Of a DNA stretch of 64,000 bases, positions 42,006 to 60,579 are shown in pieces. The DNA comes from Enterobacter asburiae (GTDB lineage Bacteria; Pseudomonadota; Gammaproteobacteria; Enterobacterales; Enterobacteriaceae). The position numbers were made by a program, and so were the translations under genes. The notes under the pieces were generated by a model that saw nothing but the letters and a program-made list of their open reading frames with translations, was not told the origin of the DNA and searched no databases. Numbering within the stretch: the stretch's first letter is position 1; the number at the start of each line of letters is the position of its first letter. The stretch is from positions 3,348,001-3,412,000 of the forward strand of contig NZ_AP019632.1 of NCBI RefSeq assembly GCF_007035645.1, read 5' to 3'.

Positions 42006-42347
42006 TCAGTGCGCCTGACTGTGGTTCTCCTTGCGGTACGCCCCAGGCGGCTGGTTGAACGTGCGGGTGAAGATACGGGTAAACGTCTGCTGCGAGTCAA
42101 ACCCGTAACGCAGGCAGATGTCGTACACCCGAGCGTCGGATTCACGCAGATCGCGCGCCGCCAGCAGCAGCTTGCGCTCACGGATATAACGCCCCAGGCT
42201 CTCCCCTTTGTACTGCATAAACAACCGCTGCAGGTGCCACTTCGAGTAGCCCGCGTGGCGGGCAATCTCTTCTATACGTAATGGCTGGTGCAGATTGTCG
42301 TCGATCCATTCGACGATAGTGTCGATGACTTGAGCGGAAATGGTCAT
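42006..42347 (-). CDS. ramA: RamA, AraC-type multidrug-resistance activator
   Basis: A 113-residue MarA/SoxS/Rob-family activator nearly identical to Klebsiella and Enterobacter RamA. Two helix-turn-helix units are seen: RIEEIARHAGYSKWHLQRLFMQYKG and VYDICLRYGFDSQQTFTRIFTRTF; it ends GAYRKENHSQAH. The start at 42347 (MTISAQVIDTIVEWIDDNL) gives the standard length; 15 in-frame codons precede it. It raises acrAB-tolC and lowers porin expression in related species. It follows romA by 32 bases and is under RamR control in relatives. Confidence 0.95.
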   Translation of the reverse strand: MTISAQVIDTIVEWIDDNLHQPLRIEEIARHAGYSKWHLQRLFMQYKGESLGRYIRERKLLLAARDLRESDARVYDICLRYGFDSQQTFTRIFTRTFNQPPGAYRKENHSQAH

Positions 42348-42379
42348 GCTGCTGTCCCCCTCTGCTTCTCGCTTAAACA

Positions 42380-43483: not shown

Positions 43484-43537
43484 ATCCAGACCCGAAAACG
43501 CGCCCCATCCGATAGATTGCGCGGGGTAAACTTGATT

Positions 43538-43557
43538 ATGAGTGAGTAAGCACTCAT
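43538..43557. promoter_or_regulatory. RamR operator
   Basis: ATGAGTG-N6-CACTCAT is a perfect 7-bp inverted repeat, 54 bases before romA and 116 before ramR. It matches the ATGAGTG-N6 dyad known as the RamR site in Salmonella and Klebsiella. Both half-sites are intact, so repression of romA/ramA should be functional. Confidence 0.85.
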
Positions 43558-43672
43558 TATAGATATGATGATAAAGTCGTCAAGACGTTTTCGATCTTTG
43601 ACATTCCGCGTTGCAGCGTGTCAAAGCACGTGTTTCAATCGGGTTTTTATAATTGACAGGGGGAAAAATTTA

Positions 43673-44263
43673 GTGGCACGTCCGAAGAGTGAAGATAAAA
43701 AACAGGCCTTACTGGAAGCCGCAACGGTGGCGTTTGCACAGTCAGGTATTGCCGCCTCAACGTCGTTAATCGCCCGTAACGCGGGCGTCGCCGAAGGGAC
43801 CCTGTTTCGCTACTTTCCCACTAAAGACGATCTGCTGAATGCCCTCTATCTGCATCTGAAGCAGGATCTCTGCCAGGCCATGCTGGCAAACCTCGATCGC
43901 ACCATCACGCTGCCCAAAGAACATACCCGCAATATCTGGAACAGCTACGTGGACTGGGGTATTCGTAACCCCGTTTCTCATGCGGCTATCCGCCAGATTG
44001 GCGTCAGTGAAAAGCTGAGCGCCGAAACCGAACAGGCGGTGAAAGAGATGTTCCCGGAACTCCATGAGCTGTGCCGCCGCTCGGTGCGTCAGGTGTTTAT
44101 GTCAGATGAATTTAAAACGTTTGGCGATGCGCTTTTCTTATCGCTGGCCGAATCCACGATGGAATTTGCCACTCGCGACCCTTCCCGCGCCGTTGATTTT
44201 AAAGCGCTCGGTTTTGAAGTGATGTGGCGCGGGCTGGCCCAGGAAGAGAGCGATGGACAGTAA
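43673..44263 (+). CDS. ramR: RamR, TetR-family repressor of ramA (GTG start)
   Basis: A 196-residue TetR repressor. The N-terminus [55 protein letters not shown] is nearly that of Salmonella RamR; the ligand-binding domain follows. The GTG at 43673, with GGGGG about nine bases upstream, gives the standard N-terminus; the open frame to 43565 passes through the operator and was rejected. No premature stop or frameshift is visible, so the repressor looks intact. It overlaps ybdF by 11 bases. Confidence 0.94.
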
Positions 44264-45799: not shown

Positions 45800-48409
45800 A
45801 TGAAAAATAAAAGTGCAGTGAGCACAAAGGCTAATTCAAAGGTATTGCACGCCAAACTGGCGCCGACCTGCTTTGCGACCATGCTTGCGCTGGGCATGAT
45901 TATGCCAGCTCAGGCTGCCATCGTGGCAGGTAATACCGATAAACCGGCCATTCATACGGATGCAAGTGGCGCAACCATCGTTGATATCAACAAGGCGAGC
46001 GCGGGTGGGGTTTCCCATAACGTTTATTCCGAATTTAACGTCGACAGCAACGGCGTGATCCTGAATAACAGCGGCACAGCAACCAACACCCAATTAGCAG
46101 GCCAGATCAATGGCAACGCGAATATGGCCGGCGGCAGCGCTAAAGTGATCCTGAACGAAGTGCGTTCATCCGATCCGAGCCAGCTGAACGGCATGGTCGA
46201 AGTGGCGGGCCAGTCCGCGCAGGTGATTATCGCCAACCCATCAGGCATTACCTGTGACGGCTGCGGCTTTATCAATACCAACCACGCTACGCTGACCACC
46301 GGTACTGCCACCTACGATAACAAGGGTAATGTTAGCGGTCTGGATGTGAGCAAAGGTCAGGTGACCATCACCGGTAAAGGGATGGATACCCGCTCTACGC
46401 AGTACACCGACATTATTGCCCGTTCAGTGAAGGTCAATGCGAAACTTCAGGCTAACGAACTGAATATCGTCACGGGTAATAACCACATTGATAAATATGG
46501 CCGCGTGCAGAAGAAGTATGACAGCAGCAATGCCCCGGACGTAGCGCTGGATGTGTCTGCGCTGGGCTCCATGTACGCGAATAAAATCTATATGGAAGGC
46601 ACTGACGCCGGCGTTGGCGTGCATATCGATGGTGCTGACCTGACGGCATCCGACACGCTGTCAATCAACGTTGAGGGTGTGGTCGAAAACAACGGCGGAC
46701 GTATCAGCGGTAAAAATTCAGCTACCGTGATGGGAAGTGATGTCCTGAACCATAACGGTCAGATTACCTCTGAGGGGATGGTGTCCGTTGCCGCAGACAA
46801 CACGCTGGACAACACTAACGGCGTCATTAAAGCTGCGATGGTGAATGTTTCCGGCAAAAATACCGTTAACAGCCATGGTTCCATTCAGGGCAGCCAGAAT
46901 ACCTTTATTACCGCTGACTCGCTGGACAACAGCGACGGTGAAATTCTCAGCAATGGCGATTTGACGATCGGCCGCGCCTCCTGGAATTACAATGCGCAGG
47001 GCGTGAATAACACCCATGGCCGCATTGTTGCTAAGGGTGCCCTCAGCGTTGACGCTGCCAGCCTGAACAACTCCGCTGGCCGCGTAGAAACCAACGGTGC
47101 GATGAGCGTCAATGTCGACACGCTGACGAACGACAACGGTCTCATTTCCGCCGGGAACGGCTGGAACATGATTAGCGCCTCCATGCTGAATAACGATAAC
47201 GGTGTGATTCAGTCTCTGGGATCTGACAGCCAGCTTCAGGTGAGCGGCAACAACATGCTCTCTAACCGCAATGGATCAATCCACAGCGACGGCTCTGTTT
47301 CAATCAATGGCGCGCTGGATAATATGTCCGGCACCATCGCAGCCGAAAAAGACCTCTTTATGTACGGCACGTCCTACTATTCTGACCTTGCCAGTAAGAT
47401 GGAAGCAGGCGGCAATATCGACATGACCGTGACCGGTACGTTCCAGAACGCCGGAACCCTTAAAGCGGGTCAGGATATGATGTTAACCATCGGTTCTAAT
47501 GGCTGGAATAACTATGGCGGCCCGGTGCAGAACAGCGGTTCCATCGCGGCTGGCGGTCGCCTGGCGCTGCAGATGAACAGCAGTCAGTTCGACAACAGCG
47601 GCGACATTACCGCTAATCAGATGGATCTTCAGCTGGCAGACCTGTCCAACAGCGGCTCGATCGTCAGCAAGAATGATATCAACCTGAACACCACTAGCCT
47701 GGAAAACCGGGGCAACGGTACGCTCGTCGCAGACCATAACATCAACATTACCGCCTCTTATCTGATGACCGATGCAGGCAGCCAGATCAACGCGGGTTCT
47801 GATGCCATGCTGTTTGTCATGAACAATCTGGACAACAGCGGTGACATCCGCGCGGCGCATGACATTAATCTCGACGTAATGGGCAGCTACGGCTGGTCTC
47901 AAAGCACCGCGTATAACTACGGCACGATTGTGGCGGGTAATACCCTGAACGCACAGATGGACCGCGTAACCCTCATCAACGGCGGTACGCTGTCTGCTGA
48001 TAACGGTATTACCCTGGTCAGCAACTACCTGACCAACAGCGGTAACATCACCAGTGCAAGCGGTATTACGCTGAACACGACTAACGGCATTAACAACGAA
48101 GCCAGCGGTAATATTACCGGCGATCGCGTGTACACCATGGGTTACGTCAATAACATGGGTGTGATTAACGAGACCGGTACAGCAAATCAAGACAACGGTA
48201 GTAACACTGCTGATAACAATAATACCAACCCAGATTCAGATACCACGGCGAATAATAGTGGAAATACCACCGTTAAGCCAAACGGTACACCTGAAGGTAA
48301 TGGCGTTTGGGAAAACGGCGTTGTCTATTATCCGGGCGATCTGTATTACGGGTATCCCATTCAGGATATCGTTTATTACCCAGGCGGCTACTCCATTTAT
48401 ACCGCTTAA
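45800..48409 (+). CDS. TpsA-type exoprotein with filamentous-haemagglutinin TPS domain
   Basis: An 869-residue secreted protein. Residues 1-39 form an extended signal peptide ending MIMPAQA. The TPS secretion domain spans about 40-280, with NNSGTATNTQLAGQINGNANM, NEVRSSDPSQLNGMVEVAG and Asn146 in ANPSGITCDGCGFINTNHATLTTG. A beta-helix of ~20-residue repeats follows (LDNSDGEILSNGDLTIG, LNNSAGRVETNGAMSV). Residues ~800-840 are a Ser/Thr/Asn-rich tract; the end is Tyr-rich (YYPGDLYYGYPI). It is much shorter than FhaB/CdiA and has no toxin domain. Start chosen from AAGGATAG upstream. An adhesin is likely. Confidence 0.9.
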   Translation: MKNKSAVSTKANSKVLHAKLAPTCFATMLALGMIMPAQAAIVAGNTDKPAIHTDASGATIVDINKASAGGVSHNVYSEFNVDSNGVILNNSGTATNTQLAGQINGNANMAGGSAKVILNEVRSSDPSQLNGMVEVAGQSAQVIIANPSGITCDGCGFINTNHATLTTGTATYDNKGNVSGLDVSKGQVTITGKGMDTRSTQYTDIIARSVKVNAKLQANELNIVTGNNHIDKYGRVQKKYDSSNAPDVALDVSALGSMYANKIYMEGTDAGVGVHIDGADLTASDTLSINVEGVVENNGGRISGKNSATVMGSDVLNHNGQITSEGMVSVAADNTLDNTNGVIKAAMVNVSGKNTVNSHGSIQGSQNTFITADSLDNSDGEILSNGDLTIGRASWNYNAQGVNNTHGRIVAKGALSVDAASLNNSAGRVETNGAMSVNVDTLTNDNGLISAGNGWNMISASMLNNDNGVIQSLGSDSQLQVSGNNMLSNRNGSIHSDGSVSINGALDNMSGTIAAEKDLFMYGTSYYSDLASKMEAGGNIDMTVTGTFQNAGTLKAGQDMMLTIGSNGWNNYGGPVQNSGSIAAGGRLALQMNSSQFDNSGDITANQMDLQLADLSNSGSIVSKNDINLNTTSLENRGNGTLVADHNINITASYLMTDAGSQINAGSDAMLFVMNNLDNSGDIRAAHDINLDVMGSYGWSQSTAYNYGTIVAGNTLNAQMDRVTLINGGTLSADNGITLVSNYLTNSGNITSASGITLNTTNGINNEASGNITGDRVYTMGYVNNMGVINETGTANQDNGSNTADNNNTNPDSDTTANNSGNTTVKPNGTPEGNGVWENGVVYYPGDLYYGYPIQDIVYYPGGYSIYTA

Positions 48410-48427
48410 TCGTTTGAAATAAACCAA

Positions 48428-48461
48428 AGCCCCATTCCTGGAATGGGGCTATCTATTTTTT
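48428..48461 (+). terminator. Hairpin terminator/attenuator between tpsA and tpsB
   Basis: AGCCCCATTCC and GGAATGGGGCT form an 11-bp stem with a 1-base turn, then ATCTATTTTTT. It lies 19 bases after tpsA and before tpsB, so it would lower the transporter relative to the exoprotein. Confidence 0.8.
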
Positions 48462-48502
48462 CGTTATATTCAGGATCCTTCGCGGTCCATAAAGTTATTT
48501 AC

Positions 48503-50161
48503 ATGACTAATTATCGATCTGGCCTCGTTCTGCTATCACTGCTCGCGTCACTTCCCGATACTGTACATGCTGAACCGGCCACCACTCAGCAGCAGGATCA
48601 GGCGAGGCACGAACAGCTTGCACCGCCTGGGAAGTCAGTCCTTTCATCAGAAGGCATGCTCGCAACTGATGCGCTTGCACTGCCACATGAGACAGTGTGC
48701 TACGACATTCAGCATCTGAACATCGACAATACGCAGTCGCTTCCTCACTGGCTCACTTTTCGCGATATCATTCGTCAGGCTGAGAATAACTGTATCGGCG
48801 TGAAGGGAATTAAAGCCATACATACGGCCGTGCAGAATCGATTAATATCCCACGGATTTATTACTACCCGCGTATTAATACCGGAGCAAAATTTGCACAA
48901 GGGAACGTTAACCCTGCGAATTCTGCCTGGACGCGTCAGTGATGTCATTATTCAGGATGAAAGCGGCCTCCCCGTTCATAGCTGGAATAACGTCCCACAA
49001 GGGCCGGACGATCTCCTCGATTTACGCGGTCTGGAACAGGGGCTGGAAAACCTGCAGCGTATTCCCGGTTCGCAGGCCAGTATTCGTCTGGTGCCGGGGG
49101 AAAATCCTGGCGATACCCGCATTGAGATCAAGCGCGACCAGCGTAAAGCCTGGCGACTGGGCAGCTGGTTTGATGATTCCGGTAGTAAATACACCGGACG
49201 GTACCAGGGGGGCCTGGCGCTGTATCTGGATAACCCCACCTCGCTCAACGATATGTTTTATGCAGCGTATGGCGGTGGCTTCAAAAATGAAAACGGCAAG
49301 CGTAACGATAATACCTCGGCGTTTTACTCCGTTCCCTGGGGATACTGGGCGCTGGAACTTTATGCCAGCCAGTACAGAACGACGCAGACTCTCCATAGCG
49401 GTGATTTTAACTACCGGTACAGTAGCGATGAAAAGTTAATGACCGCCGCGCTTAACCGCGTGGTTTACCGCAGCGCGAGCCAGAAAACCACGCTGGACTT
49501 TAAAGGGATCAAGCGGGATTCCCGCTACGATCTTAATGACGTGGAAGTGGAGGTTCAGCACCGGGACACCAGCAGCTGGCAGCTCAGCCTGGAACATTTA
49601 GCCTATCTTCCCTTCGGTCAGCTTACGGCAAGCCTCGGTTATCAACATGCCGCACCGTGGTTTGGTGAAGAACCCGATGCTGAAGAGATGGTGGGCAGTG
49701 CCGACGCGCAGGCGCGCATCATTACGCTGAGTGCAGACGGTACTTTCCCGTTCAAACTGGGCAAGTTTGCCCTCAGCTATGAACCGCACTTCAAGCAACA
49801 GACCTCTCCGGACAGGCTGACCCAGCCCGATAAGTTCACCATCGGCAACCGCTGGACGGTGCGAGGCTTTGACGGAGAGTCCTCATTGTATGCCGACAAA
49901 GGCTGGTATCTGCGCAACGATATCAACCTGAATCTGCCGGTATGGGGAATGCAGCCGTATATTGGCGCAGACTATGGCGAAGTCAGCGGCTCAGAAAATG
50001 ATTACTGGAGCGGGGCGCACATTGCAGGTGCGGTCGCTGGCGTGCGCGGGGTAAAAGGCCATCTGGGGTATGACCTTTTTGCGGGTGTACCACTGGCAAA
50101 ACCGGATGAGATGCATACCAGTCCCGTCACGCTTGGGTTTTCGGTGCAATGGCAGTACTGA
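48503..50161 (+). CDS. TpsB-type outer-membrane transporter (ShlB/FhaC/HecB family)
   Basis: A 552-residue Omp85-superfamily protein. The signal peptide is about residues 1-23. A POTRA domain follows (CYDIQHLNIDNTQSLPHWLTFRDIIRQAENNCIGVKGIKAIHTAVQNRLISHGFITTRVLIPEQNLHKGTLTLRILPGRV), then a second POTRA and a 16-strand barrel. The conserved VRGF motif sits in TVRGFDGESSLYADKGWYLRND. It exports the TpsA protein encoded 93 bases upstream. Start at 48503 gives a clean signal peptide; the frame upstream crosses the terminator hairpin. Confidence 0.9.
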   Translation: MTNYRSGLVLLSLLASLPDTVHAEPATTQQQDQARHEQLAPPGKSVLSSEGMLATDALALPHETVCYDIQHLNIDNTQSLPHWLTFRDIIRQAENNCIGVKGIKAIHTAVQNRLISHGFITTRVLIPEQNLHKGTLTLRILPGRVSDVIIQDESGLPVHSWNNVPQGPDDLLDLRGLEQGLENLQRIPGSQASIRLVPGENPGDTRIEIKRDQRKAWRLGSWFDDSGSKYTGRYQGGLALYLDNPTSLNDMFYAAYGGGFKNENGKRNDNTSAFYSVPWGYWALELYASQYRTTQTLHSGDFNYRYSSDEKLMTAALNRVVYRSASQKTTLDFKGIKRDSRYDLNDVEVEVQHRDTSSWQLSLEHLAYLPFGQLTASLGYQHAAPWFGEEPDAEEMVGSADAQARIITLSADGTFPFKLGKFALSYEPHFKQQTSPDRLTQPDKFTIGNRWTVRGFDGESSLYADKGWYLRNDINLNLPVWGMQPYIGADYGEVSGSENDYWSGAHIAGAVAGVRGVKGHLGYDLFAGVPLAKPDEMHTSPVTLGFSVQWQY

Positions 50162-50223
50162 CGGAGAAAGTCTCAGAATGGACGCAGGAGCGTTAGCCCC
50201 TGTCGGAGGGGGTAAATACAATC

Positions 50224-51962
50224 ATGATTTACCCTCTTCAGGCTCTAATGAACACGCTGACATCCTCTTTGATTACGCTGGCAAATATATTGCTAAACGC
50301 CCGCACGATACGCGTGCTGATACTGTCCACTTTCAGCCTTTACTGGCTGGTGCTACTCCATATCCCCTGGCCTAACAACGGCGATTACGGCATGAACCTG
50401 CCGATGAACCTGCTGTGCTGGGGCGTGATGTCCATGCTGTCGCTGCTGGTATGGCTTTTTTTGCGTACGGCAACCGTGCGTATTACACGCACCAGCATAC
50501 TCATGCTGGCGAGCGCGGTTCTGTTTACGCTGCCGATCCTCTGGTCTCCTTCTGAAGGCTTACCGACTGCCCTACCCCGGCTGGTCGGGATCTGGGGCGG
50601 AGTGTTGTGTTACGTGACTCTGCTTCAGGTTCCTCTTCAGGAGAAAGAAACCACAGGGATTTTTTATCTGCTGGCTATCGCTGCCGTTGTGGAATGTCTG
50701 ATTTCGCTGGCGGGGCTTTACTGCCCGGCGTATCTCCCCTTCCCGCTCAATAACCTGGCTGAAAATTATTCTGGCTACGCACCGGGTATATTTCAGCAAC
50801 TGAATGTCACCGCTCATTTCTGGCGACGGGGCTGGTCGCCCTGCTGTTTGTTCTTGCCGATGCTCGATGCGTCTGTTACCGGGTTCGCGCAGAATCGTAT
50901 CGCCTGCTGTTTATTTGTGTCAGCATCATAGTGATATCGGCCACGCTGGTTGTGTTTCACTCACGCACCGGCTGGCTCGGCGGGTTAATCGGCATTCTGT
51001 GCGTATCGGTGATGTTCAGCCACCCGCGTTTTCGCGTTCGAACGACAAGTCGCCGCCGCCTGCTGGTGGTCCTTTTGCCGTTCGCGGGTGGGCTTTTAGG
51101 CATGCTGATGCTGAATCAGCCTCTGGACGCATCCCTCGCGCACGAAAGCTCCAGCAATCAGCGGATGTTAACCCTGGAATACACGCTACGTATGATCGGC
51201 GTTCATCCTTGGCGGGGCTGGGGGTTAGGAATGTTTGAACCCGCCTTCCAGAATTTTATGGCCGCGCTGCCGTTCGATAATCCAAGCCGGGAAATGATGC
51301 AACACCCGCACAATGAGACGCTGTTTATCTGGGCGGAGGGCGGCGTGATTGCGCTGGCGGGCGGGCTGTGTCTCCTGTGGGGCTGGATAGTTCTTTTCCT
51401 GAGGCGAAAAAGCCTGTGGCAGTGGGCGGCACTGCTCACCACCTTGCCGATTCTGCTGCACACTCAGGTGGAGTTTCCACTCTATTATTCCGTGGCGCAC
51501 TATTTTGCCATTCTGATTTTAATGGCCTCAGCAGACGGAGAACTCCGCACATTTCAGGTTCGCAGTTCGCGGTTACGTTGGCCGCTGGTGTTCATCGCAC
51601 TGTATGGCTTAGTGCTTTCTGCACAGCTTTTTTTTGCCAGCATTGTGCTGGGAAATTTTGAGACGGGCAGACTTGCTTTCCCTGAGAGCATTACCGGTTT
51701 ACACGTGCCGGGACTCATGCAGATGCGCTATCAGCGTGACCTTAGCCAGCTCCATTTGTTGCATTTCAACCGGTCGGGCGATATCGATGAGCTGGAAAAG
51801 TATGCCGTTGAAAACAGGGAGTGGATTACATTGCATATGGTCGAGGATGCCTGGAACGATCAGGTCAATATTATGTCCTTTTTACAGCACCAGAGCGAAG
51901 CTGAGAAATTAAAACTCCAGGCCCACCGGTTAATGCCATGGGACGATCGTTTTAAGCCATAA
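50224..51962 (+). pseudogene. WaaL/PglL-type O-antigen ligase or O-oligosaccharyltransferase, frameshifted
   Basis: Two frames join into one ~579-residue polytopic membrane protein. The first runs from 50224 to GIFQQLNVTA; one base is missing near 50812-50814, after which SFLATGLVALLFVLADA...VVFHSRTGWLGGLIG continues in the other frame to 51962. The Wzy_C signature HSRTGWLGG and the periplasmic HPHNETLFIWAEGG are typical of WaaL and PglL ligases, and the long C-terminal domain resembles PglL. GGAGGGGG precedes the ATG. It follows tpsB by 62 bases, suggesting it once glycosylated TpsA. The lesion is not in a homopolymer. Confidence 0.8.
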
Positions 51963-51980: not shown

Positions 51981-52007
51981 AGCCGCGTTTATTAACGCGG
52001 CTTTTTT
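51981..52007 (+). terminator. Rho-independent terminator of the tps block
   Basis: AGCCGCGTT and AACGCGGCT pair around a short loop, followed by TTTTTT; 18 bases after the ligase stop codon. Confidence 0.88.
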
Positions 52008-52316: not shown

Positions 52317-53294
52317 TTACTGGTAGATGAGTTCCAGAACTGCCGTGGCATTTGCTGCGCCAGGACGAATTGCTTCTTTAGTTTGAATATAGCGAGCGGT
52401 AATAGGAAAACTTTCTTTCCCGCCGGAAGATTTTTTCAAAGTAATGAGTTTGTTGATTTCAAGCGGCGTGCCATTATAAAGAAGCTGTACGCCTACACCA
52501 TCTGCAACGCCGTTCTGGCCCTGATTGCCACTGAGTGCCAGAATACTCTTTTCGGTGGAATCAGGGTTCTGTACGCCATTAAGCTTAATATTGATATTTG
52601 CGTCGGCATTGCAGTCCAGCTTAAGATCCACCGTGCTCGTCTTATCAGGAGTAGAATTCACCCCTTTAAATTCAGTTGTGAGTACGTCTCCGATCGGAAA
52701 GGACAAGCCATTGCCTGATTCAATTGAACATGCCAAAGAGTTAATATTCCCTCCCGATGTATTTATGTTAAAGAGAACAGTGCTTGTTTCTAAATTGGTC
52801 ACACGGCCTATTTCGCCTGCCGCCAGTCGGCCCGAAGTAATATCTCCCGTCTTTACTAAATAAACGGTTGCAACATTACTTGCTGTCCAATACGTATACG
52901 AACTCATACCAGTCGGGCTACTGAAAGAATTATTCTTCCCTGGATTTTCAAAATAATCGTAAGCTCCGGCACCTGAATGGGTATAAGTAAACACCTTAAT
53001 GCCGACGCCCGGGATGTTTGTATTATAAACGGAGGCGAGTGATGTTTTAGTTGCACCGGCATAATTCATCTTCATCTCTTGCGTGCATGCACCGGCGTAT
53101 GCAGAGATACCTACCGTCGCCGGGACGGAAACCTCCTTCTGCAATAACACGGTGCCTACCGGCACATCTCTTTGTATATTAAGATCGTTAAAGGTAAAAT
53201 CTGCTACCTGGCCTTGACCACCTGGAGTACAACTAGCATAGCTATACCCACAAAACAAAAAGGCAATAAGGAAAAAAAAGATATTTCGATTCAT
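52317..53294 (-). CDS. Two-domain fimbrial tip adhesin (FimH position)
   Basis: A 325-residue exported protein, last gene of the operon. Signal peptide ~1-20 (MNRNIFFFLIAFLFCGYSYA) precedes CTPGGQGQ. The N-terminal ~170 residues have Cys pairs and aromatic-rich strands (VFTYTHSGAGAYDYFENPG, GMSSYTYWTA), a lectin-like receptor domain. The C-terminal pilin domain starts near LACSIESGNGLSFPIGDV and ends with the donor-strand-accepting motif AVLELIYQ. Its size and position equal FimH, but the receptor domain shows no clear FimH mannose-pocket motif, so the ligand is unknown. Confidence 0.85.
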   Translation of the reverse strand: MNRNIFFFLIAFLFCGYSYASCTPGGQGQVADFTFNDLNIQRDVPVGTVLLQKEVSVPATVGISAYAGACTQEMKMNYAGATKTSLASVYNTNIPGVGIKVFTYTHSGAGAYDYFENPGKNNSFSSPTGMSSYTYWTASNVATVYLVKTGDITSGRLAAGEIGRVTNLETSTVLFNINTSGGNINSLACSIESGNGLSFPIGDVLTTEFKGVNSTPDKTSTVDLKLDCNADANINIKLNGVQNPDSTEKSILALSGNQGQNGVADGVGVQLLYNGTPLEINKLITLKKSSGGKESFPITARYIQTKEAIRPGAANATAVLELIYQ

Positions 53295-53414
53295 AACACA
53301 TATCTCATAAAAACCTAAAGTCAGATCAATCCTTCTTTAGTTACTGAAAAAGAAAATACAATGAACTTGTATTAAATATGAAACAGAAAAGCCATAAATC
53401 TGTCATTGGCCGTT

Positions 53415-53942
53415 TCACTCATAATTTATGACAAACGTCACCGTCACATTCGTGCTTCCCGCCGTAACGCTGTCTTTTACAGCCGTATAACGCGCCGAGA
53501 AATCCAATACCGCCTCAGCCTGCTCCGGTTTCAGTGCTACACCCGTGCTGGTTTTCCCCGGTGGGACAGGCTTACCGTTACCGTCATAGATTCCCAGTGC
53601 CAGACCATTGACTGAATCTGAACTGACGTCAATAGCGAATAAATCAGAGTTTAGTGAATCCGCAACGCCCGAAAAGGTAACGGTGGCTTCACTTGCCGCC
53701 GGTCCGCAATGTTCCAAATTAATGGAGAATGACTTATCGGGTGAACTGTCTCCTACTTTCCTGAATTGTTTTTGTGCCATCACCCCCATATCCACAACGA
53801 AATTTTGTGAATCAGAAGCAATTTCGCAAGTGTTATCCTGAATAACACCTGCAATATTCACCGTTCCGTCATGGGCCTGTGACAGGCCACAAAAAATCAT
53901 CACTAACCAGGAAATAAACTGTATCTTATTACATTGAATCAT
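53415..53942 (-). CDS. Minor fimbrial subunit (FimG position)
   Basis: A 175-residue pilin. A signal peptide of ~22 residues (MIQCNKIQFISWLVMIFCGLSQA) precedes HDGTVNIAGVIQDNTCEIA; Cys pair (NTCEI, LEHCGP) and the C-terminal beta-zipper VTVTFVINYE are present. The start at 53942 was preferred to 53996, which overlaps the upstream gene and spoils the signal peptide. Likely a tip-fibrillum adaptor between the FimF-like subunit and the adhesin. Confidence 0.85.
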   Translation of the reverse strand: MIQCNKIQFISWLVMIFCGLSQAHDGTVNIAGVIQDNTCEIASDSQNFVVDMGVMAQKQFRKVGDSSPDKSFSINLEHCGPAASEATVTFSGVADSLNSDLFAIDVSSDSVNGLALGIYDGNGKPVPPGKTSTGVALKPEQAEAVLDFSARYTAVKDSVTAGSTNVTVTFVINYE

Positions 53943-53952
53943 GACCAGTAAC

Positions 53953-54477
53953 TCATTGATATGATAAATCAAAAAATAACACTGCTGTCGCATCACCAGG
54001 CGTCACAGGGTATTTTGTTGATTTGTAACGCAACAGAAAGGAGAGCGTATTTTCTCCCTCATCCAATGGAAATGTCTTCGATTCGGACTTATTAAAAGGT
54101 ATGGTTTTGCCCCCGTTATCCAGCAATTCAATACCAATACCTGTAGCGAGTGTCGTTCCTGTTTCAGTTTCGCTCAGAGCGAGTAATACTGGATTGTCAG
54201 CATCGGGCGTACCCGAAAACTTAACCGAAACTGAAGCCAATTTACTGTAACAATTTGAGAGATTAATATTCATCGCTTTGAATGCAGAATTACTGCCGAC
54301 AGAGGGAAAATCCTTACCTGAAAATGAGCCTATAGTGATTTTTTTTGTGAAAGCAACCTCACAGACGCTTGCCACCACATCGCCAGAGATGGTCAGGGTA
54401 CTTTCGCTCGCCTTAGCCGGGAATATCCCTGCCACAGAAAAAATAAGCAAGAAAAAACATAACACATTATTTTTCAT
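53953..54477 (-). CDS. Minor fimbrial subunit (FimF position)
   Basis: A 174-residue pilin with signal peptide MKNNVLCFFLLIFSVAGIFPAKA, then SESTLTISGDVVASVCEVAFTKKI. The Cys pair lies in SVCEV and LSNCYS, and it ends AVLFFDLSYQ. The start at 54477 gives the clean signal; eight codons of open frame precede it inside the usher end. A tip adaptor by position. Confidence 0.85.
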   Translation of the reverse strand: MKNNVLCFFLLIFSVAGIFPAKASESTLTISGDVVASVCEVAFTKKITIGSFSGKDFPSVGSNSAFKAMNINLSNCYSKLASVSVKFSGTPDADNPVLLALSETETGTTLATGIGIELLDNGGKTIPFNKSESKTFPLDEGENTLSFLLRYKSTKYPVTPGDATAVLFFDLSYQ

Positions 54478-54491
54478 GGTTTCCTTCCCTA

Positions 54492-57122
54492 TTAGCGACA
54501 AATCAATTTGATCTGCGTAATCGCTGTATTTTCTGCTTCAACAGGAAGTTGATAGCTTGCGTTACAGGTCATGTTGCTGCCCTCTCCCCACTGCACCGTG
54601 AATGTGCCCTTTTGCGCCAGGCCGGATAGATAAACCTGTCCATCCTCTCCAACAATGCTGCCAGTACCATCGTCACGCGTGACGGTCGCCCCAAACGGAA
54701 CAGGCTGGTTATTATGCAGCAACGTTATCAGTGCACGGCTACCTACATGGGCCTTGAAGGAGACGCGAACCAGAGCACCTTTTGTAGGAACAACATCTGC
54801 TACCGTGTCCTCAAGATCAACTTTGTCACCCAGTGTTGTGGTGTCCAGGCCTATACGGTTTTTACGGTAGGTCGTTGCGAAAGGCACAACAGCATATCCA
54901 CGCCAGTCCGTTTTCACGCCGGTGGAGTTTTCAACTTTAACGTTATCCGCACCCGGCGCTTCAACCAGGACATTCGTTTCCCCTAGCGGCTGGCTCAGAG
55001 TAATGCCGTGTCGATGCGCCACGATGCCGCCCGCAACGCCGTAGGTCACCTGCTGAGAATTACTGCTGTCGTAGCTGTAACCTACGTTGGCATTACCATA
55101 TCCACCCTGATAAGCAAGGCTGGCATTACCGCTATTACCTGTACCCTGATTACCGTAGCCCTGCTGAACGCTGTAGCTCAGGTTATTGCCTTCCAGCAGA
55201 GTACCGCTGATCCCGGCGTTCTGGGTGACGCTACCGTGGTTATCGTGGTTCATGCTGTACGTCGCAAATGCGTTATTTGACGACGAGGCTCCCTGCGCTG
55301 AGAGCCATTTACCGATCGGTAACGACAGGTTGAATGCAATCATTTTGTCGGCTACGGGTTGGCCGGACATCTGGCTGTAGTTGTAGCTCAAACCGATATT
55401 AATATCCTTCCAGGTGGTGTTATAACCAAACTGCACCAGCGTATCTTTATCATCGTTATGCCAGTAACTTTGCTGGCTTCCGCTGAGATAAATGGAGCCA
55501 AAACCACCCAGTTGTTGAGAAATATTGACCTGCAACTTTCCGCGCTTGGTGTAATAGAGGTTGTAGTAGTCGAACCAGTGCGGCACATCGTTGTTATCAT
55601 CATCATCCTCGTTCAGCGGATTGCTGTTGTAGCCATCCATGTGCTTGTACGTAGTATCCGTAAAGGTGTAATAGCCTGACGTTGAATAGCGATAGCCCAA
55701 TAACTGGAAGTTAGTTCCTATTTCGTTTAACGATTTTGCATAAAGCAAACGCAATGACTGACCGCTATGCTCGGTCTCATCAATAAGCGTACTTTGGGCG
55801 TGAGTGACATCCGCAGACAGCGCGCCCCAGTGGCCCATATTGACCCCCGTCCCGATCGCCATTGCCTTGTAGTTGTCAGACAGCTGTGCGCCGCCATACA
55901 ACGTAAAACCATGCGGCAAGCCCCAGCTTAATGTTCCTTGTGTGAAAGAGACTTGATCTTGCTGTTCGTTGCTGGTGCGGTACTTCGCGGCTGTGGCAGA
56001 ATATTTCAGACGACCTTCGCGCTGTAGTAACGGGACGGCGGAATAAGGGACAGAATAGGAGGTAATAGCACCATCCTGCTCTTTTACTTCTACCGTCAAA
56101 TCCCCGCTTGAGGATGTCGGAAAGAGATCGTCTATTGCAAAGGCGCCAGGCGCTACGTAAGTCTGATAAATAACGTATCCGTTTTGTTTGATCGTCACCT
56201 GAGCGTTGCTTTTTGCAATACCGCGCACCGTGGGGGCGAAGCCTTTTAGGCTGTCCGGCAACATATTGTCGTCTGAGGCCAGCTGAACACCACGGAAGCT
56301 AACGCTGTCAAACACGTCACCACTGGTATAACTGTCACCCACCGTCAGTTCACTTTTCAGCGAGATGATCGTGCGTTCCAGAAAACCACTAATGTGTTGC
56401 CACTGGCTGGTTGTCTCTCCATTACTACTGGTGCTACGGTTAAATGTAGAATAGTCACGATAACGCCATGCTCCCAGGTTTACGCCGCCGTTTAGCCCCA
56501 GAAAATTGCTGCTACCTTCGCCGCTGCTGTCTTTTCGTCTGGAGCCATTCAGGTTGTAGTTCAGAAGCAGGGCGTTAATCCCCTGATCCCATTTTTCCGG
56601 AGGAATGTAGCCCCGTGCGCTATTTTTAAGCGCAACCTGTGGCACACTGAGATCCAGGCGCTGCTTGCTAAAATCAAAACTGGCTTTAGCCCCCTCAATC
56701 AAAGTCGCGATGTCGATACACTGTCCGTCTACAGACTGTTTTCGGTCTTGCGGAATACTCAGATCGAGCCCCAGGCCGCCCAACACCTTCTCAGATAAAC
56801 AGGCCGTCAAACCTGTATCATCGGAGGATGACGGGGCACTGGAATTCTGCGTTTGCCGGGCCTGAAACTCGACATCATGACTGATGATAAAATCATTATT
56901 GAGATAGATGTCTACGCGATATATCCCAGGGGCCTGGCTGCCGTCGTTTTCAAAGCGGGATAGATCGGCAACCTGATTTTTGCCATCCGCTAAAAAAGCC
57001 GGATTAAAATAGTTCTCTGCATGCAAAACACCGGGAAATAAACCCGTTCCAATAACTAAAGCTAATGGAGATAACCGCCAGCAGACTGCATTAATCATTC
57101 GAGCTTGTTTTCGAAGTTTCAT
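54492..57122 (-). CDS. Fimbrial outer-membrane usher (FimD-like)
   Basis: An 876-residue usher. After an N-terminal signal region ending VLHA comes the periplasmic N domain (ENYFNPAFLADGKNQVADLSRFENDGSQAPGIYRVDIYLN). The barrel and plug follow (FRGVQLASDDNMLPDSLKGFAPTVRGIAKSNAQVTIKQNGYVIYQTYVAPGAFAIDDLFPT, the classic usher signature). C-terminal domains contain NTTGVKTDWRGYAVVPF-type sequence and the paired Cys in NMTCNASYQL and IKLICR. It secretes and orders subunits delivered by the 57145 chaperone. Confidence 0.94.
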   Translation of the reverse strand: MKLRKQARMINAVCWRLSPLALVIGTGLFPGVLHAENYFNPAFLADGKNQVADLSRFENDGSQAPGIYRVDIYLNNDFIISHDVEFQARQTQNSSAPSSSDDTGLTACLSEKVLGGLGLDLSIPQDRKQSVDGQCIDIATLIEGAKASFDFSKQRLDLSVPQVALKNSARGYIPPEKWDQGINALLLNYNLNGSRRKDSSGEGSSNFLGLNGGVNLGAWRYRDYSTFNRSTSSNGETTSQWQHISGFLERTIISLKSELTVGDSYTSGDVFDSVSFRGVQLASDDNMLPDSLKGFAPTVRGIAKSNAQVTIKQNGYVIYQTYVAPGAFAIDDLFPTSSSGDLTVEVKEQDGAITSYSVPYSAVPLLQREGRLKYSATAAKYRTSNEQQDQVSFTQGTLSWGLPHGFTLYGGAQLSDNYKAMAIGTGVNMGHWGALSADVTHAQSTLIDETEHSGQSLRLLYAKSLNEIGTNFQLLGYRYSTSGYYTFTDTTYKHMDGYNSNPLNEDDDDNNDVPHWFDYYNLYYTKRGKLQVNISQQLGGFGSIYLSGSQQSYWHNDDKDTLVQFGYNTTWKDINIGLSYNYSQMSGQPVADKMIAFNLSLPIGKWLSAQGASSSNNAFATYSMNHDNHGSVTQNAGISGTLLEGNNLSYSVQQGYGNQGTGNSGNASLAYQGGYGNANVGYSYDSSNSQQVTYGVAGGIVAHRHGITLSQPLGETNVLVEAPGADNVKVENSTGVKTDWRGYAVVPFATTYRKNRIGLDTTTLGDKVDLEDTVADVVPTKGALVRVSFKAHVGSRALITLLHNNQPVPFGATVTRDDGTGSIVGEDGQVYLSGLAQKGTFTVQWGEGSNMTCNASYQLPVEAENTAITQIKLICR

Positions 57123-57144
57123 AACATCTTATGACCTGTCTGCA

Positions 57145-57828
57145 TTACGCATTGCATGTTAGTGCTGGGGTTACTGCGCCATAGTCATTCATGGTCTGGA
57201 AAGAGATACTGCCCTGGGCATTATCTGGCGCCGTTACCTGAAGGTTACCCATTGGGGGAACCATGTTGTTCGGCAATGCTTTCCCTCCAACGCTGAATTT
57301 CACCAGCGAAACAAAATAGGGAGAAGGGTTTGTAATGGTGATGCTTTTTCCACTACGCTGGCAACGCAGCGTTGCAGGTGCATCCATTGATTTCATTTTT
57401 AAATGCGCAGGGCGAACAAATAATTTGATCACACTTTGCGTAGCGATCTGTAAGGTATTACCCTGAAGTTGTTTTTTATCGAGTGAAGGTATTGCTTTGT
57501 TATTGAAGTAAAATACTGACTCGCGATCTTCCGGAAGTTTTGGGCCTACATACATGATGCGCAGAACGTTCGCTTTTTGAGGCTTCATCACAAACAATGG
57601 CGGCGTCACGGTAAACTGTGTGGATTTATTACCCTGGAGATCGGACACCCAAGATTGTACCAAAAACGTCTCTTTGTTATTGGTGTTAACAACATTGATG
57701 CTGGTTTGTTTTTCACCCAACGGATAAATGATTCGGGTGGCCCCCAGTGCGATCCCTTCTGCATAAACAAAATGACTATTTCCCAGACAGAGCATTGGCA
57801 AGAGTAACATTGAAATAAGGGTTTTCAT
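57145..57828 (-). CDS. Fimbrial periplasmic chaperone (FimC position)
   Basis: A 227-residue FGS-type chaperone. Signal peptide ~1-22 (MKTLISMLLLPMLCLGNSHFVYA) precedes EGIALGATRIIYPLGEKQTSINVVN, with the subunit-binding Arg in TRIIY. TPPLFVMKPQKANVLRIMYVG and the conserved Lys in SVIKLFVRP follow. A longer open frame to 57882 was rejected because it lengthens the signal peptide. It is third gene of the operon. Confidence 0.9.
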   Translation of the reverse strand: MKTLISMLLLPMLCLGNSHFVYAEGIALGATRIIYPLGEKQTSINVVNTNNKETFLVQSWVSDLQGNKSTQFTVTPPLFVMKPQKANVLRIMYVGPKLPEDRESVFYFNNKAIPSLDKKQLQGNTLQIATQSVIKLFVRPAHLKMKSMDAPATLRCQRSGKSITITNPSPYFVSLVKFSVGGKALPNNMVPPMGNLQVTAPDNAQGSISFQTMNDYGAVTPALTCNA

Positions 57829-57888
57829 TTTTAAAAAATCCAAAAAAAAAATAAAAAAGCATCCTGGTGAGCACTTATCCATTTTTAC

Positions 57889-58422
57889 TTACTGATAAAT
57901 CACCGAGAAAGTGACGGCCGCACTGGCATCCCCCGCCGTAACGGGCATCGATACAGAGCGATATCGTGCGGTAAACAGTAATGTGTTCTCTCCGGCAATC
58001 AGCGGCATTTTTGCGAGAGGTTGGCTATCAGGAATTACCTGGTTGCCTCTCATATCAAAAATACCAATTCCGACGCCCTTTGCAGCACCAGAGCCAAAAC
58101 CTGCCTGAAAGACCTGTGGATCCTTAAGATCAGCCAGTCCGTTGAAGGTGACGCCTGCCGACTCGCTGGTTGAAGTGGCACAATTTTCAAGCTTAATCCA
58201 GAAGGTGACCGGTTCCGCCCAACTTCCTGGCCCTAAAAATGAACCGGTACGGACTTGACCCATCATGACACTCTGGTCAAAACTCTGCGTATCAATTGAA
58301 CATGAGCTATTAACCACAGCACCATAGAAATGCACTTTTCCCACGGTTGATATATCGCTGCTAATACCTGGCTGAATAAATAGCAGTTGAACGAAAATTA
58401 TCAGTGCTATCAGACGAAACAT
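57889..58422 (-). CDS. Fimbrial subunit (FimI position)
   Basis: A 177-residue pilin. Signal peptide ~1-21 (MFRLIALIIFVQLLFIQPGIS) precedes SDISTVGKVHFYGAVVNSSCSID. The Cys pair is in SSCSI and LENCATS; the end AAVTFSVIYQ is the pilin beta-zipper. Between FimA- and chaperone-like genes, it matches FimI, an anchor or terminator subunit. Confidence 0.85.
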   Translation of the reverse strand: MFRLIALIIFVQLLFIQPGISSDISTVGKVHFYGAVVNSSCSIDTQSFDQSVMMGQVRTGSFLGPGSWAEPVTFWIKLENCATSTSESAGVTFNGLADLKDPQVFQAGFGSGAAKGVGIGIFDMRGNQVIPDSQPLAKMPLIAGENTLLFTARYRSVSMPVTAGDASAAVTFSVIYQ

Positions 58423-58460
58423 GTTTATCTCAATAAAAAATAATGATGAAGCGCCAGAAA

Positions 58461-58489
58461 TATCCCCCCCGGAATTCCAGAGGGGGATA
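58461..58489 (-). terminator. Attenuator hairpin after the major pilin gene
   Basis: TATCCCCC and GGGGGATA form a GC-rich stem with a ~13-base loop between the major subunit and the FimI-like gene. It probably reduces read-through, giving excess major subunit. Confidence 0.55.
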
Positions 58490-58499
58490 AATAAAGCAA

Positions 58500-59051
58500 T
58501 CAGGAATAGATGATCTGGAATGTTGCAACAGCTTCAACAGCACCCGCTGTTGGTTCATCCCCAGTTGTCAGATAATCAACACTCATAGGAATGGTGTTGT
58601 CGCCTTTTGACAGCGGAATGGTGTCAGATGCGGTTCCAGAGTTAACATTCATCGCCTTACCATCTGGCCCAAACAGGCGCAAAGCCACGCCAGTTGCTCC
58701 GCCAGAACCTGCGGTGTTAGCCAAAGCACCTGCAGTTACAGCGTCAGACTGACCGCTGAAACTGATAGCGGCATTCGTATAAGTGCTGACATCGCAGTTA
58801 GTCAGGGTCACGTAGAACGGCTTAGACTGGCCAGAAACGGCATCTTTAGCGCCGAGGCTTTTCAACGTAATTTGATCAATATGGACAACCTGGTCTTCAG
58901 ATTCCAGGGCAACAGCGCACGGTGCGTCAACCACAGAACCCATAAACTTAATATTACCACCGTTAACGGTCGTAGTGGTGCTTGCCGCCTGTGCACAGGT
59001 GGCGCTTGCCATAATAGATGCCATAACTACAGCGAACATATGCTTCTTCAT
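58500..59051 (-). CDS. Major fimbrial subunit (FimA position)
   Basis: A 183-residue pilin. Signal peptide ~1-22 (MKKHMFAVVMASIMASATCAQA) precedes ASTTTTVNGGNIKFMGSVVDAPCAVALESEDQVV. The Cys pair lies in APCAV and LTNCDVS; GATGVALRLFGPDGKAMNV and the C-terminal AVATFQIIYS are family hallmarks. First gene of a minus-strand operon in fimA-I-C-D-F-G-H order, divergent from a second chaperone gene. Confidence 0.93.
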   Translation of the reverse strand: MKKHMFAVVMASIMASATCAQAASTTTTVNGGNIKFMGSVVDAPCAVALESEDQVVHIDQITLKSLGAKDAVSGQSKPFYVTLTNCDVSTYTNAAISFSGQSDAVTAGALANTAGSGGATGVALRLFGPDGKAMNVNSGTASDTIPLSKGDNTIPMSVDYLTTGDEPTAGAVEAVATFQIIYS

Positions 59052-59334
59052 TTAAAACTCCAGATACCTATAAGAAAGAAAAATCCTGTTTTCTCAAATA
59101 AAACATTATTTTTCAGCGAAAAAATACTCAGCATGTTGCAACAATGTTTTACTGACATGGGAATTTTTACAATATTAAATTTCCAGTTCAAATGAAATGC
59201 GATCCTCTCCTGGCTCCTAAATGGGACAATGTTTAGAAGGACAATACCCTTAGCGGTACTTAGAATTACAGCATCAGCATGGAAAACTGTCTTTTCCCGT
59301 TAAGGAGTCATATATTATCTCTTGGAGTTTTACC

Positions 59335-60009
59335 GTGAAAATTATTTCTATTTTACTGCTTGGCTGCACTATCGCTGCCACCTGCCAGATGGCTCATGCA
59401 ACGGTCAATATTGGCGGAACACGCCTCGTCTATGCAGGTGCAAAAAAAGAAGTGTCGCTCAGCGTTCGTAATCCGGACAGTAGTCCTTATCTTATCCAGA
59501 CGGTTATCGATAATCTTGATAGTAGTCCGCAAAAACCGCCCTTTATCATCACCCCTCCGCTTTATCGCCTTGATGGAGGGAAAGAAAACCTGATGCGCGT
59601 TATCCAGTCAGGAAATCTTCCACAAGATAAAGAGTCCATGTTCTGGCTACGTGTTAAGGCAATCCCATCTGCGCCACGTGAAAAAAATACGCTACAGATT
59701 GCGGTATCAACCAGCATCAAACTGATTTACCGCCCGGACTCGCTGAAAAACCTGGATGTAGAGAAAGAGAGCGACAAACTCAGCTGGCATATCTCTGGCA
59801 ACCAACTGGATATCAACAATCCGACGCCCTGCTACATTAATTTCAATGAAATCAGTGTTGCCGGAAAAAAACTCACGAATGTCTCCTATGCGTCTCCAGG
59901 AAAAACAACATCTTTTACGCTACCTGCGGGTGTTAATTCAGGAAATATTCAATTTAGCGTCATCAGCGACTTCGGCGCTGTGGGTAAGATGCACTCAAAA
60001 TCTGCTTAA
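59335..60009 (+). CDS. Second fimbrial chaperone, divergent from the fim-like operon
   Basis: A 224-residue FGS-type chaperone with signal peptide MKIISILLLGCTIAATCQMAHA, then TVNIGGTRLVYAGAKKEVSLSVRN. The Arg of TRLVY, ITPPLYRLDGGKENLMRVI and IKLIYRP are conserved. It is clearly different from the 57145 chaperone. It starts the plus-strand unit with the pilin gene that begins directly after its stop. The 283-base gap to the major pilin should hold both promoters. Confidence 0.9.
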   Translation: MKIISILLLGCTIAATCQMAHATVNIGGTRLVYAGAKKEVSLSVRNPDSSPYLIQTVIDNLDSSPQKPPFIITPPLYRLDGGKENLMRVIQSGNLPQDKESMFWLRVKAIPSAPREKNTLQIAVSTSIKLIYRPDSLKNLDVEKESDKLSWHISGNQLDINNPTPCYINFNEISVAGKKLTNVSYASPGKTTSFTLPAGVNSGNIQFSVISDFGAVGKMHSKSA

Positions 60010-60579
60010 ATGGTTATGATTATGTTTAACGTAAATAAATTCTTTTTATCATCAACAGCCTGTATTTTCCTTGCTGCGGGTATTGTCCACTCGGCTTTTG
60101 CCGTAGACCCAGTACAAATTACCGTAACGGGCAATATTGTCGCCTCACCTTGTGTAATCGATACGGGAAGCGAGTCATTAAATATTTCTCTGGGAGACCA
60201 GTTGCAAAGCGCCGATCTCAATGCAGCAGGAAGCGGTTCTGCATGGGTACCAATTAACGTCGTTTTCAAAAGCTGTCCGGCGGGTACTTCAACCATTACC
60301 GCGACATTTCACGGCACAGCCGATGCTGGGGACCCGAATACACTGTACAGCAACACGGCAGTAGATGCGGGTGAAAACAAAGCGGCCAAAAACATCGCTG
60401 TTCAGCTTGAAGGTTTGGCTAATGAAGCTTACGGCAACGGCAAAACGGCGACTATTGATATTGCCTCCGCAGGCACGACCCCCACCTTTAAGATGCATAC
60501 TCGCGCTTTCAGTAAAGACGGTGGCGCGACACCGGGAAAAATCAGCTCCGTTATCACGATGTCATTCACGTATAACTAA
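60010..60579 (+). CDS. Second fimbrial subunit, paired with the divergent chaperone
   Basis: A 189-residue pilin. Signal peptide ~1-31 (ends HSAFA) precedes VDPVQITVTGNIVASPCVIDTGSESLNISLGDQLQSADL. The Cys pair is in SPCVI and FKSCPAG; the end SSVITMSFTYN is a pilin beta-zipper. ATGs at 60010, 60016 and 60022 are possible; no clear ribosome site distinguishes them, and coupling to the upstream stop (TAA-ATG) is likely. No usher accompanies this pair, so it probably uses the 54492 usher. Confidence 0.85.
   Translation: MVMIMFNVNKFFLSSTACIFLAAGIVHSAFAVDPVQITVTGNIVASPCVIDTGSESLNISLGDQLQSADLNAAGSGSAWVPINVVFKSCPAGTSTITATFHGTADAGDPNTLYSNTAVDAGENKAAKNIAVQLEGLANEAYGNGKTATIDIASAGTTPTFKMHTRAFSKDGGATPGKISSVITMSFTYN

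What the first reader, a model, noticed from the sequence alone, without database searches (positions are those of the whole stretch)
45800..51962. Two-partner secretion pair followed by a PglL/WaaL-type ligase: a possible dedicated exoprotein O-glycosylation system
The sequence shows a short TpsA, its TpsB, and 62 bases later a Wzy_C-family ligase (HSRTGWLGG, HPHNETLFIW, long C-terminal domain). The ligase is bounded by the block's terminator, so it belongs to the unit. O-oligosaccharyltransferases of the PglL class are known to be encoded next to their protein substrate and to modify Ser/Thr-rich low-complexity tracts. TpsA carries such a tract (about residues 800-840, rich in N, T, S, D, G, P) just before its Tyr-rich end. 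HMW1A is glycosylated by a cytoplasmic N-glycosyltransferase; a TPS system with an O-OTase would be different and, to my knowledge, little described.
Basis: partly seen in the sequence, partly recalled or inferred. Interest (0 to 1): 0.78.

Follow-up and report, generated by a model that had tools for sequence, protein, structure and literature searches.

The report
Fimbria-linked PglL-type glycosylation enzyme, broken here
A broken gene lying behind a secreted-protein pair belongs to a family of probable protein-glycosylating enzymes that in related bacteria is encoded again and again inside operons for hair-like surface fibres (fimbriae), suggesting that some enterobacteria may sugar-coat such fibres.

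Summary
In detail: TpsA, TpsB and, 62 bases on, a Wzy_C/Wzy_C_2 ligase split over two frames. The PglL half of the reading is supported by domains and diagnostic residues. The TPS half is not: none of 81 other ligase loci of the family carries TpsA or TpsB, and the TpsA tract also occurs in orthologues with no ligase nearby. The ligase goes with chaperone-usher (CU) fimbriae instead: 69 of 81 loci have an usher within 7 kb (about 3% expected), 31 lie within 100 nt of a same-strand fimbrial gene, and ligase and usher distances correlate. In the window a CU operon lies tail-to-tail 354 bases away, and the window ligase groups with five ligases whose ushers are the closest to its own. Best explanation: a CU-linked O-oligosaccharyltransferase that decorates pilus subunits, broken in this strain. 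Linkage is shown; activity and acceptor are inferred. Against: the closest usher in the genus, at the same chromosomal site, lacks the ligase; most close usher relatives do too; no acceptor signature was found. Ten searches of the held library turned up no CU-linked O-OTase; Yersinia WaaLXS is probably one.

The parts
45802..48409 (+). tpsA, short TPS exoprotein (ORF opens at 45674; likely start 45802)
   Evidence: Pfam TPS E 6e-46, TIGR01901, FHA-type repeat; start from the ribosome-binding site seen
48428..48450 (.). terminator-like hairpin between tpsA and tpsB
   Evidence: 10 pairs, 6 GC, T-rich tail
48503..50161 (+). tpsB, outer-membrane transporter (ORF opens at 48443)
   Evidence: Pfam ShlB, POTRA_2, POTRA_3
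50191..50250 (+). hairpin directly behind tpsB, with a counterpart in G012, which has no ligase there; no T run
   Evidence: (-26.6 kcal/mol, z -4.4)
50224..50931 (+). PglL-type ligase, N-terminal piece (start possibly 50251); last residues out of frame
   Evidence: aligns with intact relatives up to about residue 199-211 in most; FQQLNV motif
50931..51962 (+). PglL-type ligase, C-terminal piece with Wzy_C and Wzy_C_2 (its frame is open some way upstream of 50931)
   Evidence: 41% identity to the intact ligase of G124 over residues 2-343
51981..52002 (+). intrinsic-terminator-like hairpin behind the ligase
52317..53294 (-). probable fimbrial tip adhesin, last gene of the CU operon, tail-to-tail with the ligase
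   Evidence: Pfam Fimbrial + MrkDrd
53415..53996 (-). fimbrial minor subunit
   Evidence: Pfam Fimbrial
53953..54501 (-). fimbrial minor subunit
   Evidence: Pfam Fimbrial
54492..57122 (-). fimbrial usher
   Evidence: Pfam Usher, PapC_N, PapC_C
57145..57882 (-). periplasmic chaperone
   Evidence: Pfam PapD_N, PapD_C
57889..58422 (-). fimbrial subunit
   Evidence: Pfam Fimbrial
58500..59051 (-). fimbrial subunit, first gene of the operon (likely major pilin, by position)
   Evidence: Pfam Fimbrial
59335..60009 (+). second periplasmic chaperone
   Evidence: Pfam PapD_N, PapD_C
60010..60579 (+). probable further fimbrial subunit
   Evidence: profile label; no Pfam Fimbrial hit; 58% to a Pfam-Fimbrial ORF in L360
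60868..61488 (+). HTH_46 regulator; a homologous ORF (by inspection) stands behind tpsB in G012, which lacks ligase and CU genes there

Best explanation
The third gene is a broken member of a branch of PglL-type O-oligosaccharyltransferases (O-OTases) that in enterobacteria is mostly encoded in, or beside, chaperone-usher (CU) fimbrial operons. Its partner is the CU operon at 52317-60579, not the TPS pair. Working model: in strains with an intact gene, the inner-membrane ligase takes an undecaprenyl-diphosphate-linked glycan (an O-antigen, common-antigen or locally made unit) and transfers it to Ser/Thr of periplasmic pilus subunits or the tip adhesin before or while chaperone and usher assemble them, so the fibre is displayed glycosylated. 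In this Enterobacter the ligase lies tail-to-tail with its operon, behind tpsB, and is frame-disrupted, so it is probably inactive. Shown: family, conserved linkage, correlated distances, purifying selection on intact copies, interruption here. Inferred: enzymatic activity, glycan donor, acceptor, and effect on the pilus.
For: Linkage: 69 of 81 ligase loci in the family have an usher within 7 kb, 58 of these on the same strand, and 31 of 81 lie within 100 nt of a same-strand CU gene (gene orders, with overlaps of 4 and 11 nt). Expected about 3.3%, from 676 usher matches in 70 genomes and a typed mean genome of 4.85 Mb. Named set: 12 of 13 enterobacterial loci have the usher, the 13th being a 5.8-kb contig; 67 of 67 Vibrionaceae loci have uvrA instead and no usher within 7 kb. 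A further genus, probably Yersinia: 21 of 23 ligases lie within 3.7 kb of an usher domain. Distances: ligase and usher distances correlate, r 0.63 for 69 pairs (best of 2000 permutations 0.19) and 0.46 for 44 non-redundant pairs (0 of 5000); the window ligase clusters with L164, L169, L023, L165 and L168, whose ushers are the five closest to the window's among ligase-linked ushers (56-60%, next 36%). On an usher tree the label 'ligase-linked' changes 5 times, against 33 in shuffles. Class: Wzy_C and Wzy_C_2 in 5 of 5 CU-linked relatives scanned, PglL_A in 4 of 5, one of them below its cut-off; columns matching Q178, N180, G316, G318, H400, E404, P406 of Schulz 2013 (PMC3643930) are invariant in 24 of 24. 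Selection: dN/dS 0.12-0.35 in 12 intact pairs. Independent: Y. enterocolitica WaaLXS/Ye777 can act as a ligase yet has no LPS role at home, as told in PMC3643930 (passages).
Against: The closest usher in the genus (75%, L360 in G004) lies at the same chromosomal site with neither ligase nor tpsAB. Of the 13 ushers in 61 genus genomes that are at least 57% identical to the window's, 3 (G000, G467, G026) have a ligase in or beside their own operon, and one more (the second of G467) lies downstream of the same ligase; the other 9 have none. In the window the ligase is on the other strand from the CU operon and on the same strand as tpsAB. 12 of 81 loci have no usher within 7 kb, or no ligase ORF. 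Subunits of linked operons have shorter, not longer, hydrophobic-free runs than subunits of 40 ligase-free operons, and no shared C-terminal Ser/Thr was seen, so no acceptor is identified. The 40 comparison operons were picked by hand from listed ushers of genomes that carry a ligase elsewhere. The ligase tree was printed without support values. No activity was measured.
Confidence: 0.6

Rival explanations
1. One reading: tpsA-tpsB-ligase is one dedicated unit in which the O-OTase glycosylates the TpsA low-complexity tract.
For: Same strand and 62 bases apart; a tract rich in N, T, S, D, G, P exists; the hairpin between tpsB and ligase lacks a T run; the 6 of 392 genomes with a close TpsB orthologue, window genome included, all carry a PglL-type ligase somewhere, against 58 of 392 overall, and so does G012 in the genus.
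Against: 0 of 81 other ligase loci carry TpsA or TpsB; the tpsAB loci L158 and L160-L163 have no ligase beside them yet keep the tract; a similar hairpin stands behind tpsB in G012 without the ligase.
Confidence: 0.07
2. The ligase is a general O-OTase, like those of Neisseria or Vibrio, that modifies many exported proteins, TpsA and pilins among them, and merely lives in fimbrial operons.
For: Neisseria PglL is a general enzyme (PMC3643930, passages) and tight linkage to one substrate is said not to be widely observed for PglL (PMC12645811, passages); TpsB orthologues co-occur with ligases in trans.
Against: The repeated CU linkage with correlated distances is unlike the uvrA-linked enzymes, which sat by uvrA in 67 of 67 Vibrionaceae loci.
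Confidence: 0.17
3. A WaaL- or Wzy-like ligase or polymerase that builds a surface polysaccharide co-regulated with the fimbria, with no protein acceptor.
For: In L025, L170 and L228 a nucleotidyltransferase, a WavE-type protein and an ABC exporter follow the ligase; some ligases overlap LuxR-type or EAL genes; Yersinia WaaLXS can replace WaaL in E. coli (PMC3643930).
Against: PglL_A, Wzy_C_2 and PglL-specific residues; own genome has a separate Wzy_C protein.
Confidence: 0.12
4. Chance or hitch-hiking: ligase and CU genes share variable islands without a functional tie.
For: Patchy presence; the window site itself shows four configurations.
Against: Expected 3.3% against 69 of 81; overlaps of 4-11 nt with chaperone or subunit genes; distance correlation.
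Confidence: 0.04

Closest known systems
PglL of Neisseria, Vibrio cholerae (VC0393), Acinetobacter and Burkholderia
   Same: Domains PglL_A, Wzy_C, Wzy_C_2 and the PglL-specific residues (residues from PMC3643930).
   Different: In Table 1 of PMC3643930 they lie by type IV pilin homologues, by uvrA-type genes or by others; this branch lies mostly in CU fimbrial operons. The window's C-terminal piece is at most 41% identical to any other ligase found in the family.
WaaLXS / Ye777 of Yersinia enterocolitica
   Same: PglL homologue with ligase ability but no LPS role at home, speculated to be an O-OTase (PMC3643930, passages). Y. massiliensis by name (L308) and 21 of 23 ligases of a genus that is probably Yersinia are CU-linked.
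   Different: Ye777 itself was not fetched; the 2013 table labels its context a type IV pilin homologue, where these relatives show ushers.
TfpO/PilO, TfpM and PglS O-OTases
   Same: O-OTases often encoded near their substrate (PMC12645811, passages).
   Different: They serve type IV pilins, not CU pilins (recalled).
WaaL O-antigen ligase (PDB 7tpg)
   Different: The match ends at residue 427; the relative has a further helical C-terminal domain and Wzy_C_2. The own-genome Wzy_C protein (taken as WaaL-like without proof) is at most 22% identical to any of the ligases.
HMW1A/HMW1C two-partner secretion glycosylation
   Same: A TPS exoprotein next to a glycosylating enzyme (recalled).
   Different: HMW1C is a cytoplasmic N-glycosyltransferase (recalled); the TPS link here is not conserved.

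Membership tests
PglL-type O-OTase | Wzy_C O-antigen-ligase domain | tested here: met
   Window C-terminal piece E 4e-16; 5 of 5 CU-linked relatives scanned
PglL-type O-OTase | Wzy_C_2 domain | tested here: met
   Window piece E 2.5e-9, above the Pfam cut-off, over positions 1-74 of 191; 5 of 5 CU-linked relatives scanned
PglL-type O-OTase | PglL_A motif | tested here: inconclusive
   No Pfam hit in the window's N-terminal piece, though FQQLNV is there. Of 5 CU-linked relatives scanned, L024, L169 and L183 pass the cut-off, L164 falls just short and L023 has no hit
PglL-type O-OTase | PglL-specific residues Q178, N180, G316, G318, H400, E404, P406 and shared R224, R298, P313, H349 (PMC3643930) | tested here: met
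   Window pieces by inspection, spacings close but not identical; in 24 relatives the matching columns are invariant, except those for R224 and P313, which are nearly so. Matching is by order and pattern; no Neisseria sequence was aligned
PglL-type O-OTase | Location outside LPS loci | tested here: met
   Window neighbours are TPS and fimbrial genes; a separate Wzy_C protein lies elsewhere
PglL-type O-OTase | Transfers lipid-linked glycan to Ser/Thr of proteins | not testable with these tools
   Needs glycoproteomics
PglL-type O-OTase | Intact reading frame in the window | tested here: not met
   Two pieces in different frames; a degenerate member, or an assembly error
WaaL O-antigen ligase | Gene in LPS-core locus, no Wzy_C_2 | tested here: not met
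Dedicated TPS-O-OTase unit | Conserved tpsA-tpsB-ligase order | tested here: not met
   0 of 81 other ligase loci; 0 of 6 loci with tpsAB or its remnant, L158-L163
Chaperone-usher fimbria | Usher, PapD-type chaperone, Fimbrial-domain subunits, adhesin | tested here: met
CU-linked ligase branch (proposed here) | Groups with CU-linked ligases and has a CU operon within 7 kb | tested here: met

The most novel reading that the evidence does not exclude
Chaperone-usher pili of many enterobacteria are O-glycosylated by an O-oligosaccharyltransferase encoded in their own operon: a glycosylation system tied to the CU pathway, in some lineages with its own glycan synthesis and export genes. This would also explain the orphan Yersinia ligase WaaLXS.
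Probability: 0.5. Interest if true: 0.85.

Novelty: new variant of a known kind. Interest (0 to 1): 0.62.

Why it matters
CU pili are among the best-studied bacterial adhesins and are generally treated as unglycosylated (recalled). A fimbria-linked O-OTase in a minority of enterobacterial species (a ligase match in 58 of 392 sampled genomes), by name in Enterobacter, Kluyvera, Serratia, Hafnia, Erwinia and Yersinia, would change how binding, stability and antigenicity of such pili are read. It makes the idea testable, since the operon names both enzyme and candidate acceptors.
Full report
WHAT IS THERE. The window lies in a 4.77-Mb genome, which I take to be Enterobacter: two genomes of the same genus have contigs of exactly the length of records named Enterobacter (G026, G467). 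Downstream of ramA, a romA-like gene, a TetR-family gene and a nitroreductase gene stand a short TpsA (TPS domain E 6e-46), its TpsB (ShlB E 2e-91) and, 62 bases on, a ligase in two frames: 50224-50931 without a Pfam hit and 50931-51962 with Wzy_C and Wzy_C_2. The pieces match the two halves of intact relatives, so I infer one frame disruption between them. A terminator-like hairpin follows at 51981-52002. Then, 354 bases on and on the other strand, comes a chaperone-usher operon with all its parts: adhesin, two minor subunits, usher, chaperone, two subunits (52317-59051), with a second chaperone and a probable subunit facing away at 59335-60579.

THE TPS LINK FAILS. I searched the C-terminal piece in 392 genomes of the tool's family (58 with a match) and 61 of the genus (14), and Wzy_C_2 in 60 relatives (16). 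The matched loci of the family outside the window were fetched: 81 stretches, mostly 18 kb. Profiles seeded with the window's TpsA and TpsB hit only the window and the loci fetched for their tpsAB. Those loci (L158, L160-L163 with both genes, L159 with a tpsB remnant) have no ligase, and the C-terminal low-complexity tract is there in the five with tpsA. A hairpin just behind tpsB has a counterpart in G012, where no ligase follows; it lacks a T run, so it is no proof of a transcription stop.

THE FIMBRIAL LINK HOLDS. 69 of the 81 loci have an usher within 7 kb; 58 of these on the same strand; 31 of 81 lie within 100 nt of a same-strand CU gene. The 12 others are one short contig, two loci without a ligase ORF, and nine without an usher in reach. 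A typical order in the window's branch is subunit-chaperone-usher-subunits-chaperone-ligase, with overlaps of 4 or 11 nt (L169, L023). In the 80 best of 283 named hits, 12 of 13 enterobacterial loci are CU-linked and 67 of 67 Vibrionaceae loci are uvrA-linked; several of the 13 are the same records as G loci, so they are not independent. In the genus of G435, probably Yersinia, 20 of 25 genomes have 23 ligases, 21 of them within 3.7 kb of an usher domain; the other two (G474, G490) lie on contigs with no usher in the list, which was cut.

CO-INHERITANCE. Ligase and usher distances correlate (r 0.63, 69 pairs; r 0.46, 44 non-redundant pairs, 0 of 5000 permutations). The window ligase groups with L164, L169, L023, L165 and L168, and the ushers of these five are the closest to the window's among linked ushers (no support values printed). 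On a tree of 69 linked and 41 ligase-free ushers the label changes 5 times against a mean of 33 in shuffles; the ligase-free ones were picked by hand. Intact ligases are under purifying selection (dN/dS 0.12-0.35 in 12 pairs). The reverse does not hold: of 13 ushers in the genus at least 57% identical to the window's, 9 have no ligase near. The ligase is an optional part of these operons.

THE SITE. Against G012 the match to the window stops at the tpsB stop and resumes at 61068; against G452 it stops at 50164 and resumes at 61520. In G004 the same site holds CU genes (usher 75%) with the regulator but neither tpsAB nor ligase, and several CU genes are missing or short. So tpsAB and the ligase/CU block are separate pieces; the site alone does not prove which piece brought the ligase. 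The family-wide pattern argues for the CU operon. In the window the ligase faces the operon tail-to-tail; loss of its own transcription unit may explain its decay (inference).

MECHANISM. Inferred: transfer of an undecaprenyl-linked glycan to pilus subunits in the periplasm. No acceptor site was found: linked subunits have shorter hydrophobic-free runs than those of 40 comparison operons, and C-termini show no common Ser/Thr. In L025, L170 and L228 a nucleotidyltransferase, WavE-type protein and ABC-2 exporter follow the ligase (Pfam on L228, the others by lengths and sequence starts); L229 has a shorter run and L227 its first two genes. This may be a local glycan supply or a separate polysaccharide system.

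NOVELTY. Ten searches of the held library listed no paper whose title or abstract start ties a CU fimbrial operon to an O-OTase. Six papers hold both 'PglL' and 'chaperone-usher'; by title they are on Acinetobacter or UTI vaccines, and I did not open them. Only passages and one section of PMC3643930 and passages of PMC12645811 were read. The library lacks most subscription journals. The nearest print is WaaLXS of Y. enterocolitica, thought to be a protein O-OTase and tabulated beside a 'type IV pilin homologue'; the original paper is not held.

LEFT OPEN. The 6 of 392 family genomes with a close TpsB orthologue, the window genome included, all carry a ligase somewhere, in three genera; in the genus G012 agrees, and G452, with a remnant of tpsB, has none. 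It is post hoc and few lineages, but a role of such ligases on TpsA in trans is not excluded.

Noticed in passing
L025, L170, L228 (partly L229, L227): Behind the CU-linked ligase follows a run: nucleotidyltransferase, about 570-aa and 155-aa unknowns, WavE-type protein, ABC-2 permease and ATPase, about 210-aa unknown, HAD hydrolase (Pfam on L228; L025 and L170 by gene lengths and sequence starts; L229 shorter, L227 only the first two genes and no usher).
   Followed up: partly
L177, L184, L187, L201, L204, L205: The ligase stop overlaps by 4 nt the start of the next ORF: an EAL-domain protein in L177 and LuxR-type (GerE) regulators in L184 and L187; the others were not scanned.
   Followed up: partly
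L019, L172, L193, L202, L208, L216, L218: Ligases of two clades, all but L208 with an usher near, sit before what looks by gene lengths like the same run of downstream genes (an ABC transporter by sequence in L019 and L208), as if cassettes were exchanged at one chromosomal site.
   Followed up: no
G158, G167, G273, G345, G405, G012: Genomes with close TpsB orthologues all carry a PglL-type ligase elsewhere; in four of them (G167, G273, G345, G405) it lies about 125 kb away on the same contig.
   Followed up: partly
L159:10476-10979: In G452 a transposase-like ORF (IS1 type by recall) stands where tpsA should be and tpsB is truncated.
   Followed up: no
L164:9747-10721: A DsbA-like thiol oxidoreductase gene lies between the chaperone and the ligase of the G124 CU operon.
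   Followed up: no
window 42006-44263: ramA, a romA-like gene and a TetR-family gene at the ramR position stand upstream of the TPS pair (ramA by NCBIfam; romA and ramR by recall and position).
   Followed up: no
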